Origin: Pseudodesulfovibrio sp. JC047
Lineage (GTDB): Bacteria; Desulfobacterota; Desulfovibrionia; Desulfovibrionales; Desulfovibrionaceae
DNA length: 64,000 nt
Assembly: GCF_010468615.1 (NCBI RefSeq)
Contig: NZ_WUEH01000013.1
Coordinates: 1-64,000 of the forward strand
Direction of reading: 5' to 3'
In this document: piece by piece, positions 49,117 through 51,793 of the stretch
Layout: each line of letters begins with the position of its first letter
How positions within the stretch are numbered: position 1 is the stretch's first letter
Made by a program: the position numbers and the translations under genes
Notes under the pieces: model-generated
Told to the model about the DNA's origin: nothing
The model's database searches: none
What the model saw: only the letters and a program-made list of their open reading frames with translations

Positions 49117-49548
49117 TTACATGGCGTACAGTGTGTCGCCAGGAATTGTGGCGATGTTATTTTTATGCAACAGCTCAATGCCTTGATCGGTTCGGTCAAA
49201 CCGGAAGATCAATACGGCTGAGTTGCCGCTTTGCTGGACAAAGGCGTACATGTATTCCACGTTGATTCCTGATTCTTGAAGCATGGTGAGGATGGCGTTT
49301 AACCCGCCAGGCACATCGGATACTTCCACAGCGACAACCGAGGTTCGCCCAACAGTGAATCCGGCTTCTTTCAGTGTGTCCTTGGCCTTGGTGAAGTCGG
49401 AAACAATAAGACGCAGAATGCCAAAGTCCGAAGTGTCTGCCAAGGAAAGCGCACGGATGTTGACGCCAGCCTCGGACAGGATGCGGGTGACCTCAGCGAG
49501 ACGTCCGGCACGGTTTTCCAAAAATATGGAGAGTTGGTCTACTTTCAT
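49117..49548 (-). CDS. Tandem ACT-domain protein
   Basis: 143 residues: two ACT domains, [27 protein letters not shown] (about 5-65) and [27 protein letters not shown] (about 70-140). Such domains bind amino acids. Genes of this type commonly follow paaK in anaerobes, and here it lies 26 bases downstream of paaK on the same transcript. A role as an aromatic-amino-acid sensor for the paaK product is inferred; the phenylalanine attenuator upstream fits that idea. Confidence 0.88.
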
Positions 49549-49574: not shown

Positions 49575-50879
49575 TTAGCCTTCTTTTCTCTTATCAATGA
49601 TGCGCTTGGCCTTGCCCGTGGAGCGTTCAATCTCCTTGGGACTGACCAATTTTACCTTGGCGGTGACGCCGAGGAATTCTTTAATGTTTTTCATTACCTT
49701 TGATTCGACCCGTTGTAAATTCTTAATCTCATCCGAGAAGATGGATTCATTGACTTCGACATGAACTTCCAACGTGTCCAGGTTGGCCTGCCGATCAACA
49801 ATAAGTTGATAGTGCGGTGTTAACCCTTCGGTTTTTATGAGAATGGATTCAATTTGTGAGGGGAAGACATTGACGCCACGAATGATGAGCATGTCATCGG
49901 AACGGCCAGAAATACGTTTCATACGGGCCGTGGTTCGGCCACATTTGCATGGGGCGGTGTTCAGGCTTGTCAGATCGCGAGTCCGGTAGCGGATGAGGGG
50001 AATTCCTTCTTTGGTCAAGGTGGTGAAGACGAGTTCGCCTTCTTCGCCCGGGCCGACAGGTTCGCCTGTTTCCGGATTGATGGTTTCTGCCAGAAAGTGG
50101 TCTTCCTGAATGTGCAGACCATCTTGGGCTTCGAGACATTCAATGGCCACGCCTGGTCCCATGATTTCGGACAGTCCATAGATGTCAATGGCCTTGATAC
50201 CGAGTTTCTGTTCGATTTCGAGGCGCATTTCATTGGTCCATGGTTCTGCACCGAAAATGCCGACGCGCAGTGGAAGGTCTTTGATGTCGATCCCCATTTC
50301 CTTTCCTGTTTCGGCCAGAAACAATGCATAGGACGGGGTGGCACAGATGACGTCCGGGGCAAAGTCCTTGAGCAGGGCGACCTGTCGTCTGGTGGCTCCA
50401 CCGGAGATAGGGACAACGGTCGCTCCCAGTGTTTCCGCACCGTAGTGAACGCCCAGTCCGCCAGTGAACAGCCCGTAGCCATAGGAGTTGTGAACTGTGT
50501 CGCTGGCCGAAGCTCCGGCAGCCATGAAAGCGCGGGCCATGAGTTCGCCCCAGTTCTGGATGTCTCGTTTGGTGTAGCCGACAACGGTGGCCGTGCCGGT
50601 TGTGCCCGACGAGGAGTGAATGCGGACGATTTGGTCTTTGGGCACGGAAAAAAGGCCGAAGGGGTATTGGTCACGGAGGTCCTGCTTGACCGTGAATGGC
50701 AGCCGAGTAAGGTCCTTCAGACTTTTTATATCCTGCGGTTTTACTCCCTTTTCATCAAAGGATTTTTTGTAAAAGGGGACAGTGGCATAGACGCGTTCGC
50801 ATAAAGCCTGAAGTCTGCGGAGCTGGAGTTTTTCCAGGTCCTCCCTTGGCAGGGTTTCGTTTTTGATGTCGTAAATCAT
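49575..50879 (-). CDS. paaK: Phenylacetate-CoA ligase
   Basis: 434 residues, adenylate-forming enzyme. The AMP-binding loop [16 protein letters not shown], the [10 protein letters not shown] motif and the C-terminal hinge YRTRDLTSL identify PaaK. In anaerobes it often runs in the direction phenylacetyl-CoA to phenylacetate with ATP gain during phenylalanine oxidation. ATG 50879 follows AAGGAGG. Expression appears governed by a phenylalanine leader attenuator upstream (50922-51053). Confidence 0.94.
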
Positions 50880-50921
50880 TCCGTGAGCCTCCTTGCACGG
50901 CCTTGATCGGCCAGTGGTGAC

Positions 50922-50995
50922 AAAATAAAAAACCACGGTCCTTTCGGCCCGTGGTCTGTGTTAGCGTTTTTTTTCGCTCCAAAATACTCCACGAA
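50922..50995 (-). promoter_or_regulatory. Phenylalanine transcription attenuator of paaK (terminator/antiterminator)
   Basis: Minus strand: ACCACGG and CCGTGGT (50955-50949 and 50938-50932) form a terminator stem followed by TTTTTTATTTT (50931-50922). An alternative pairing exists: TTCGTGG (50995-50989) with CCACGGG (50954-50948), seven pairs including two G-T, enclosing a small AGCG-A8-CGCT hairpin. The two structures share CCACGG and exclude each other. The leader stop codon lies four bases before the antiterminator arm, so a ribosome finishing the leader would cover it and allow termination, while one stalled at Phe codons would not. Confidence 0.8.
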
Positions 50996-50999
50996 CCTC

Positions 51000-51053
51000 C
51001 TACTGGGGGCACATAAAGAAGAAAAAGAAGCGAAATGCGTAGCAATTTTTCAT
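51000..51053 (-). CDS. Phenylalanine-rich leader peptide of the paaK attenuator
   Basis: 17 codons, ATG at 51053-51051, TAG at 51002-51000. The peptide is MKNCYAFRFFFFFMCPQ: six Phe in total, five consecutive, plus one Tyr. The codon run TTC TTT TTC TTC TTT is what leader peptides of phe operons show. The ribosome site is modest (GAGG about 13 bases upstream), as is common in leaders. It has no likely function as a protein; its role is ribosome stalling. Confidence 0.78.
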   Translation of the reverse strand: MKNCYAFRFFFFFMCPQ

Positions 51054-51202
51054 GACGCTGAGACTGCCTCATGTTCCAGACCTCGTCAAGAGGTTTATCG
51101 AGCCCCGACAGTGTTTGCCGTGAGGACTCCATACGACCAGCCATTGCGAACCGGGGCAAAGTGCATTACATGGCTATGAAACGATCACTGAATGGAGGAT
51201 AT

Positions 51203-51793
51203 ATGCAGTTCAGGGAATTGATGGAACGAAATAGGTCACGGCGGACTTTTGACGAGTCTCGTCCTGTTGCCATGGAAACATTGGTCGAACTGATTGCATT
51301 GACTCGATTCATGCCGTCGGGAAGGAATATGCAGCCTTTGAAATATTTTGCCGTGACTGACCCGGACCAATGCGCTGCTTTGTTTCCCCTTTTGGGCTGG
51401 GCTGGATACCTCAAGGATTGGAAAGGTCCGGCAGAAGGAGAGCGGCCAACCGGCTATATCATCATGCTTTTGGATAAGGATCTGGCGGATGATCCCGGAT
51501 GTGATCACGGGATAGCCAGTCAGTCCATCATGCTTGGAGCGGTTGAAAAAGGTCTTGGCGGATGTATTATCGGAACGTGTAACAGAAAAAAGATGGGCGA
51601 GGTACTCGACCTGTCCGAAAAATACGATATACTGTTGGTCTTGGCATTGGGTGTTCCCACTCAGGATGTGGTTGTGGAACCGCTTCCCTCTGACGGCAGT
51701 ATCACGTATTGGAGTGGAGACGATGGCAGACACCATGTTCCCAAACGTGGGATGGATGAGCTGCTTGTTGGGTGCTACCCTGAAAAAGATTAA
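51203..51793 (+). CDS. Nitroreductase-family FMN oxidoreductase
   Basis: 196 residues. FMN-binding features are visible: ELMERNRSRRTFDESRPV at the N-terminus, RFMPSGRNMQPLKYFAV and ALGVPTQDVVVEPL. It reduces nitro compounds, quinones or flavins with NAD(P)H in the general family; the substrate cannot be told. ATG 51203 follows GGAGG by four bases. It is divergent from paaK and 27 bases before rsfS. Confidence 0.9.
   Translation: MQFRELMERNRSRRTFDESRPVAMETLVELIALTRFMPSGRNMQPLKYFAVTDPDQCAALFPLLGWAGYLKDWKGPAEGERPTGYIIMLLDKDLADDPGCDHGIASQSIMLGAVEKGLGGCIIGTCNRKKMGEVLDLSEKYDILLVLALGVPTQDVVVEPLPSDGSITYWSGDDGRHHVPKRGMDELLVGCYPEKD

What the first reader, a model, noticed from the sequence alone, without database searches (positions are those of the whole stretch)
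50922..51053. Phenylalanine attenuator and leader peptide controlling paaK
Seen: a 17-codon minus-strand frame with five consecutive Phe codons, a stop four bases before an antiterminator arm, two mutually exclusive stems and a U-tract terminator 43 bases before paaK. Known: phe operons use this design. Inference: phenylacetate-CoA ligase and its ACT partner are made when charged tRNA-Phe is scarce, or read-through is tuned by Phe level. I know of no description of attenuation upstream of paaK in this group.
Basis: partly seen in the sequence, partly recalled or inferred. Interest (0 to 1): 0.85.

Follow-up and report, generated by a model that had tools for sequence, protein, structure and literature searches.

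The report
Phenylalanine attenuator switch before paaK
A tiny phenylalanine-rich gene and two competing RNA hairpins in front of a phenylacetate-activating enzyme look like a switch that turns the enzyme on when phenylalanine runs short, which suggests these sulfate reducers use the enzyme to help make phenylalanine rather than to break phenylacetate down.

Summary
On the minus strand a 17-codon ORF, MKNCYAFRFFFFFMCPQ, ends beside an antiterminator arm that competes with an intrinsic terminator before paaK-ACT. A leader ORF and terminator precede paaK in 35 of 35 congeneric genomes with the gene (Pseudodesulfovibrio). Phe codons are enriched in frame (150 against 54 expected) and the antiterminator is kept with paired changes. 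A model of these leaders matched 25 further family genomes, in 14 directly before paaK. Ribosome-mediated Phe attenuation is strongly supported, by computation only.

The leader ATG lies mostly exactly 36 nt after a TTGAC box, predicting leaderless leader mRNAs. The own genome has three more such leaders: before the aro-phe-trp supraoperon (Phe/Trp/Tyr codons), a second ADH synthase and a sodium:solute symporter. So paaK is wired like a Phe-supply gene, and PaaK probably feeds phenylacetate into Phe. Flux direction, start site and response to Phe are untested. A putative attenuator on the D. vulgaris supraoperon was listed in 2005 (PMC1173090); paaK, the symporter and the shared layout are new here. 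Rfam's Phe_leader threshold is missed.

The parts
51084..51089 (-). putative -35 box TTGACG
   Evidence: 36 nt before the leader ATG in 31 of 35 genus leaders, 35 or 37 nt in the other 4. A promoter by pattern only; the consensus scan found none.
51061..51066 (-). putative -10 box CAGTCT, 17 nt after the -35 box and 7 nt before the leader ATG
   Evidence: C 28/31, A 28/31 and T 30/31 at positions 1, 2 and 6 in the 31 rows with 36-nt spacing; atypical first base; start at or beside the A of ATG is inferred.
51000..51053 (-). leader ORF MKNCYAFRFFFFFMCPQ plus stop TAG, six Phe codons
   Evidence: a leader ORF in the same place in 35 of 35 genus genomes with paaK
51015..51029 (-). five consecutive Phe codons (regulatory codons)
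   Evidence: in-frame Phe over 35 leaders 150 observed, 54 expected, maximum 73 in 1000 shuffles
51005..51014 (-). region 1, overlapping the codons after the Phe run; pairs with 51000-50991
   Evidence: 1:2 stem, 76.3% of cells paired over 34 distinct sequences
50989..50997 (-). region 2, antiterminator 5' arm
   Evidence: 2:3 helix 93.4% of cells paired, 3 pairs with changes on both sides; slid controls 26-47%
50946..50954 (-). region 3, antiterminator 3' arm, shared with the terminator 5' arm
50930..50957 (-). intrinsic terminator hairpin (regions 3:4)
   Evidence: 95.8% of cells paired, A-U to G-C in 6 sequences at one pair; RNAalifold consensus finds it
50922..50932 (-). terminator U-tract TTTTTTATTTT
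50888..50894 (-). paaK ribosome-binding site AAGGAGG
49575..50879 (-). paaK, phenylacetate-CoA ligase family
   Evidence: TIGR02155 626.1 bits (cut-off 646.3, just below), AMP-binding and AMP-binding_C_2; nearest solved chains 2y27, 2y4o, 4r1l, all named phenylacetate-CoA ligases
49117..49548 (-). double ACT-domain protein, next gene after paaK (ACT_8)

Best explanation
This is a ribosome-mediated transcription attenuator that senses charged tRNA-Phe and controls paaK-ACT. Transcription starts at or next to the leader ATG (inferred). With enough Phe-tRNA the ribosome runs to the stop, covers region 2, regions 3:4 form the terminator and the transcript ends before paaK. If translation does not start or the ribosome leaves, 1:2 forms and termination follows as well. 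When Phe-tRNA is scarce the ribosome stalls on the Phe codons, masks region 1, region 2 pairs with region 3, the terminator cannot form and paaK-ACT is made. The switch belongs to a set of similar aromatic leaders (own genome: aro-phe-trp supraoperon, second ADH synthase, sodium:solute symporter). That wiring implies that PaaK works in the synthetic direction, phenylacetate to phenylacetyl-CoA, then by IorAB to phenylpyruvate and Phe. Shown by sequence: leader, helices, conservation, shared layout. Inferred: start site, stalling, direction of flux.
For: Leader ORF and terminator before paaK in 35 of 35 genus genomes with paaK. The model of these 35 was run over 288 family genomes: 60 match at E <= 0.1. 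The 35 genus genomes match by construction (and nowhere else at that threshold, save an antisense overlap in G035); of the 25 others, 14 match directly upstream of paaK (11 of g34, 3 of g37). In-frame Phe 150 against 54 expected; 59 and 70 in the other frames. Antiterminator 93.4% paired, changes on both sides at 3 pairs; terminator 95.8%. Partial-transcript folding: antiterminator when stalled 27 of 35; terminator with the ribosome at the stop 33 of 35, antiterminator there 0 of 35. Divergent Phe or aromatic leaders before paaK in g34 11 of 17, g37 3 of 3, g4 2 of 2 and in families f2, f5 and f3. Same layout before three aromatic-related genes of the own genome and in relatives. iorAB and pheA present; PF05138 and PF06050 not found. 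Best Rfam match over the leader is Phe_leader, below threshold.
Against: No expression data. L111, L113, L114 and L115 keep the terminator sequence but form no antiterminator in the folding test; L113 and L115 have 28-codon leaders that run past region 2, and there the ribosome-at-stop test gives no terminator. In complete transcripts of the stalled state the terminator wins in 27 of 35, the window included, and the antiterminator in 7, so the model needs folding during transcription. Six of 17 g34 genomes lack a clear ATG leader. Only 16 of 71 non-genus family paaK loci that I looked at have a Phe-rich leader at this place; 23 of 26 genera looked at have none. Of 25 non-genus genomes matched by R1, 11 are not shown upstream of paaK. 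On the joint 1:2 plus terminator count, two covariation measures do not exceed the shuffles (354 and 238 of 500). iorAB has no leader and in the named Desulfovibrionales-like loci it lies near paaK in 1 of 23.
Confidence: 0.85

Rival explanations
1. The attenuator works as described, but PaaK serves catabolism or detoxification of phenylacetate (or IOR-driven Phe fermentation), and Phe control only limits it.
For: paaK is best known from catabolism (recalled); in Desulfococcus multivorans an IOR is formed on phenylpyruvate and taken as a degradation enzyme (PMC5109826, passages).
Against: Switching on at Phe starvation is the wrong sign for Phe breakdown; the same leader type sits on ADH synthase and the aro-phe-trp supraoperon; PF05138 (PaaA_PaaC) and PF06050 (HGD-D, which holds benzoyl-CoA reductase subunits, recalled) not found in the genome. 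Other catabolic routes were not searched for.
Confidence: 0.12
2. The leader senses Phe in excess, like TnaC: nascent peptide plus free amino acid stall the ribosome and allow read-through.
For: A leader peptide before a gene of aromatic-acid metabolism; the layout alone does not give the sign.
Against: Runs of Phe codons with variable surrounding residues, rather than one fixed peptide; 1:2, 2:3, 3:4 helices; same leaders on biosynthetic genes. Rho dependence was not tested.
Confidence: 0.04
3. The stretch encodes a conserved small protein acting in trans; the hairpins are incidental.
For: ORF kept in 35 of 35; the S. meliloti leader peptide peTrpL is reported to act in trans (PMC7298713, start of abstract and passages).
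Against: Outside Phe the peptides differ in sequence and, between genera, in length, while the helices are kept.
Confidence: 0.03
4. AT-rich chance: a Phe run beside an ordinary terminator.
For: T-rich tracts give Phe codons cheaply; the R2 model has many weak T-rich matches.
Against: 3 of 100 resampled windows; conservation and paired changes; 35 of 35 genomes.
Confidence: 0.01

Closest known systems
Rfam RF01859 Phe_leader (enterobacterial Phe leaders before pheA and pheST; hosts and targets recalled)
   Same: Phe-rich leader peptide, mutually exclusive helices, terminator; the window leader aligns over the whole model 1-125 on the right strand
   Different: 19.9 bits against a gathering score of 55; no match at gathering threshold in the window or 8 other leader loci; target is paaK-ACT; probable leaderless start
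Sinorhizobium meliloti trpL / rnTrpL attenuator
   Same: RNA starts at the ATG of the leader peptide (PMC7298713 passage); here predicted from constant spacing
   Different: Trp leader before trpE; no homology claimed
Putative attenuator of the Desulfovibrio vulgaris aroA'-aroB'-pheA-aroF-tyrA-trp supraoperon (PMC1173090: section on attenuation read, Table 7 as passages)
   Same: The own genome holds ADH synthase, DHQ synthase II, PheA, AroA and TrpE in that manner, with an aromatic leader; an attenuator there was thus already listed for a relative
   Different: The table takes it from a website of predicted attenuators; the text I saw gives no leader peptide, no codon content and no mention of paaK
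Arylacetate route to aromatic amino acids in methanogens; IOR plus arylacetate-CoA ligase in Bacteroides (PMC13285125 passages)
   Same: PaaK-type AMP-forming ligase with IOR proposed for synthesis; iorA or iorB lies near paaK in 32 of 80 named loci
   Different: There inferred from enzymology and gene neighbours; here from attenuation wiring; iorAB unlinked in this genome

Membership tests
Ribosome-mediated (trp/phe/his type) transcription attenuator | short leader ORF with a cluster of codons for one amino acid | tested here: met
   150 Phe of 593 codons over 35 leaders, frame-specific; translation itself not shown
Ribosome-mediated (trp/phe/his type) transcription attenuator | intrinsic terminator before the first structural gene | tested here: met
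   termination itself not shown
Ribosome-mediated (trp/phe/his type) transcription attenuator | antiterminator that excludes the terminator | tested here: met
   shares region 3; 93.4% paired, slid controls 26-47%
Ribosome-mediated (trp/phe/his type) transcription attenuator | 1:2 stem that excludes the antiterminator and overlaps the leader codons | tested here: met
   76.3% of cells paired; 26 of 35 fold it without a ribosome, 2 of 35 fold the antiterminator then; covariation support weak
Ribosome-mediated (trp/phe/his type) transcription attenuator | read-through rises when the amino acid or its charged tRNA is scarce | not testable with these tools
   needs reporter or term-seq data
Rfam RF01859 Phe_leader | score at or above the gathering threshold of 55 bits | tested here: not met
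   19.9 bits, E 0.47
Leaderless leader mRNA (as S. meliloti trpL) | transcript starts at the ATG | tested here: inconclusive
   TTGAC to ATG 36 nt in 31 of 35, 35-37 in the rest; the start site is not mapped
T-box riboswitch | Rfam T-box match | tested here: not met
   only a tRNA in the window at gathering threshold; no T-box among the 5 matches at E <= 5 at the site
Phenylacetate-CoA ligase PaaK (TIGR02155) | score at or above cut-off 646.3 | tested here: not met
   626.1 bits, full length: a close relative; substrate not tested

The most novel reading that the evidence does not exclude
Desulfovibrionales have a multi-operon aromatic-attenuator regulon with leaderless leader peptides, in which codon content follows the product (mainly Phe for paaK, one ADH synthase isozyme and a sodium:solute symporter; Phe/Trp/Tyr for the common supraoperon and for paaK in some other families). 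PaaK-ACT and the symporter form a phenylacetate uptake and salvage branch that feeds Phe through reversed IOR. Thus genes annotated as phenylacetate catabolism are amino-acid synthesis genes in these sulfate reducers.
Probability: 0.6. Interest if true: 0.75.

Novelty: new variant of a known kind. Interest (0 to 1): 0.62.

Why it matters
paaK is usually thought of as catabolic (recalled). An attenuator that should open on Phe starvation, shared with core aromatic-pathway genes, is regulatory evidence for the synthetic direction, which PMC13285125 could only suggest for Bacteroides. It makes the direction question directly testable in a cultivable sulfate reducer, gives a leader family that Rfam does not reach at threshold, and offers a natural set of probable leaderless attenuators whose codon content tracks the product of the operon.

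Tried and rejected
Rfam at gathering threshold: only a tRNA in the window and nothing in 8 other leader loci. The promoter and terminator scan found nothing at the site. Model R2 (14 g34 and g37 leaders) proved low in specificity over the order: 160 of 348 genomes at E <= 0.05, many of them T-rich or terminator-only matches (listing cut). I inspected only chosen, mostly full-length, matches: 20 and 34. The own genome gave no R2 match in that search although four such leaders lie in it, so R2 misses real ones. R1 matches in 11 non-genus genomes (E 0.001 to 0.085) are not shown upstream of paaK: no paaK in the fetched flank (7 genomes; G209 lies at a contig end), paaK elsewhere (G150, G203), or not followed up (G048, G053).

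Rejected: T-box; trans-acting small protein; chance. Left open: TnaC-like sensing.

In print: ten searches. None listed a description of attenuation before paaK. Zero papers held the terms; one search gave one, unrelated by title. One search listed 20 of 152, among them PMC1173090, whose Table 7 lists a putative attenuator before the D. vulgaris supraoperon, so that member of the set is not new. The library holds open-licence papers only, so absence is weak evidence. That PaaL is a phenylacetate symporter of the SSS family is recalled; one search did not settle it.

The odds of the explanations were left as they were, since none of these facts bears on the mechanism; interest was lowered from 0.63 to 0.62 because of the 2005 listing.

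Full report
WHAT IS THERE. On the minus strand the window reads: TTGACG (51089-51084), 17 nt, CAGTCT (51066-51061), 7 nt, ATG (51053), a 17-codon ORF MKNCYAFRFFFFFMCPQ with stop at 51002-51000, region 2 (50997-50989), region 3 (50954-50946), a terminator hairpin (50957-50930) with U-tract to 50922, then AAGGAGG and the paaK ATG at 50879. The next gene, 49548-49117, encodes a double ACT-domain protein. The free RNA folds with a 1:2 hairpin and the terminator (z -3.1, 0 of 200 shuffles as stable).

IS IT MORE THAN CHANCE. It is the only ATG ORF of up to 40 codons in the window with five consecutive Phe codons; 3 of 100 Markov-resampled windows hold one. The genus search found paaK at E <= 1e-150 in 35 of 36 genomes (the 36th is 81% complete). 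All 35 upstream regions were taken, and each has a short ORF starting 35 to 37 nt after a TTGAC box, 36 nt in 31 of 35, followed by a terminator-like hairpin and T-tract. Leader lengths are 16 codons in 24, 17 in 6, 15 in 2, 21 in 1, 28 in 2. Phe is the commonest residue: 150 of 593 codons, against 54.2 (sd 5.6, maximum 73 in 1000) when the bases of each ORF are shuffled, and against 59 and 70 Phe triplets in the other two frames. 29 of 35 have three or more Phe; 7 of 35 also have Trp. The six with fewer than three Phe are L094, L108, L111, L114, L115 and L121. Named relatives (L008-L014, L060) show that the genus is Pseudodesulfovibrio; several are the same genomes as unnamed ones (equal contig lengths), so they are not counted again.

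HELICES. On alignment A1 (34 distinct rows) the 2:3 antiterminator forms in 93.4% of cells, with changes on both sides at 3 pairs (12 of 500 shuffles as high) and in 9 cells (shuffled mean 1.1, 0 of 500 as high); sliding the partner gives 26-47%. The terminator forms in 95.8% of cells, and one of its pairs is A-U in 28 and G-C in 6. The 1:2 stem forms in 76.3%; counted together with the terminator, pairs and cells with changes on both sides do not exceed the shuffles (354 and 238 of 500), so the 1:2 stem rests mainly on pairing and position. When stretches left free by a stalled ribosome are folded, the nascent RNA forms the antiterminator in 27 of 35; with a ribosome at the stop the terminator forms in 33 of 35 and the antiterminator in 0; with no ribosome the 1:2 stem forms in 26 of 35 and the antiterminator in 2. 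In complete transcripts of the stalled state the terminator wins in 27 of 35, the window included, the antiterminator in 7, neither in 1. So the model needs the antiterminator to form before region 4 is made, as is usual for such switches (recalled).

MODEL SEARCH. Model R1, made from the 35 leaders, was run over 288 family genomes. 60 match at E <= 0.1. The 35 genus genomes match at paaK by construction, and nowhere else at that threshold save an antisense overlap in G035. Of the 25 other genomes, 14 match directly upstream of paaK: 11 of g34 and 3 of g37 (positions compared). The other 11 are weak (E 0.001 to 0.085) and not shown to precede paaK. g34 leaders differ much in sequence, such as MLNHDLFSFFFFFFFRTEI and MFNHDFFTFFFFFFFKTEI; g37 has MQESTSPLCFTGFFFGFFFRRPIQPVA, with G-C in place of A-U in the terminator core; g4 has MWRNSLFFFRLRTPRTPTGP. 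By a fixed rule (ATG 34-41 nt after TTGAC, at least 3 Phe within 8 residues) 16 of 71 non-genus family paaK loci have a leader: g34 11 of 17, g37 3 of 3, g4 2 of 2, and 0 of 49 in 23 other genera. Six g34 genomes (L180-L185) keep the TTGAC box but show no ATG leader; two of them (G232, G233) still match R2, a g34-trained model, before paaK. Outside the family, paaK was found in 54 of 60 genomes. Of 30 such loci inspected, 5 pass a looser Phe/Trp/Tyr rule: G288 (MTAFPSTISFFATYWYFWYGFRSESVVV), G332 and G334 clearly, L303 and L305 doubtfully. G306, not among the 30, has one at 40 nt.

SISTER LEADERS. Second matches of model R2 led to other genes. In the window's own genome: (a) the supraoperon at C10, whose genes match ADH synthase (TIGR01949), DHQ synthase II, prephenate dehydratase, EPSP synthase and TrpE families, has the leader MNSTTVFNASFSNFTFWYWYSHARGLGRGTL; (b) a second ADH synthase gene at C7:70639-71427 has MNTMTTRFFCAFIFRNACGHGVR, while for a third copy at C2:117471 the scan found none; (c) a sodium:solute symporter gene at C8:78250 (its g34 relative matches PF00474) has MNTSKNRLRFFFFMDFRFFSGAYGLGVSV. 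In all three the ATG follows TTGAC by 36 nt, as for paaK. In relatives, 20 chosen R2 places lie before an ADH synthase (13), the symporter (5) or paaK (2), with ATG 36 to 40 nt after TTGAC in all 20; 34 more lie before an ADH synthase (24, one of them nearest the supraoperon copy) or the symporter (10), 32 of 34 with that layout. These places were chosen by score and span, not at random.

WHAT IT MEANS FOR PAAK. Attenuation that opens on Phe starvation, and that is shared with the first enzyme of the aromatic pathway and with the supraoperon, marks paaK-ACT as a Phe-supply unit. The genome has pheA, so PaaK would add to, not replace, the usual route. It has iorAB, unlinked and without a leader; in 32 of 80 named paaK loci iorA or iorB lies within the flank, but in only 1 of the 23 named Desulfovibrionales-like loci. 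It shows no PF05138 and no PF06050 match; other catabolic routes were not searched for. ACT follows paaK directly in 32 of 32 genus loci with enough downstream sequence and a full paaK match (L098 and L108 end at paaK; L121 has a shortened paaK match with ACT further on). A feedback role for ACT is inference.

LEADERLESS START. The constant spacing puts the expected start at or next to the A of ATG, with no evident ribosome-binding site at the usual distance (read by eye). The S. meliloti trpL RNA is a known case of an attenuator RNA that starts with the leader ATG (PMC7298713, passages). The -10 pattern CAnnnT is atypical, so this is a prediction.

COMPARISON. The site resembles Rfam Phe_leader (best match at the site, 19.9 bits, threshold 55), so it works like that family but is not filed in it. 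PMC1173090 lists a putative attenuator before the D. vulgaris supraoperon, from a website of predictions (its section on attenuation read whole, Table 7 as passages). PMC7298713, PMC13285125 and PMC5109826 were seen as passages; all others as search listings.

VERDICT. Observation confirmed; interpretation supported and extended. The RNA switch itself is a known kind, and the supraoperon member was predicted before in a relative; paaK as target, the symporter and second ADH synthase, the codon content and the probable leaderless build are the new part.

Noticed in passing
G000:C10:14662-15441 (+), L275, L273: Aromatic supraoperon leader with mixed Phe/Trp/Tyr codons (FTFWYWY) before ADH synthase, DHQ synthase II, pheA, aroA and trpE.
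   Followed up: partly
G000:C7:70639-71427 (-), L274: Second ADH synthase gene with its own Phe-rich leader and terminator; Phe-rich leaders seen before its relatives in 10 and 21 of 22 chosen genus loci.
   Followed up: partly
G000:C8:78250 (+), L307: Sodium:solute symporter gene, preceded by a small ORF and a Phe-rich leader with terminator; may import Phe or phenylacetate.
   Followed up: partly
L111, L113, L114, L115 (upstream of paaK): Leaders with terminator kept but one to three Phe codons and no antiterminator in the folding test; control of paaK may be lost or changed there, while the second ADH synthase keeps Phe-rich leaders in three of these four genomes (L331, L332, L333).
   Followed up: partly
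L121 (G006): paaK matches only residues 1-302 in one frame and the ACT gene lies further downstream than usual; paaK may be broken or misassembled there.
   Followed up: no
window 51071-51793 (+): Divergent nitroreductase-family gene next to the paaK promoter; shares the intergenic region.
   Followed up: no
L182 and L185 (g34): Leader region with Phe codons but no ATG in place; an ATT start is conceivable, and no clear terminator is seen.
   Followed up: no
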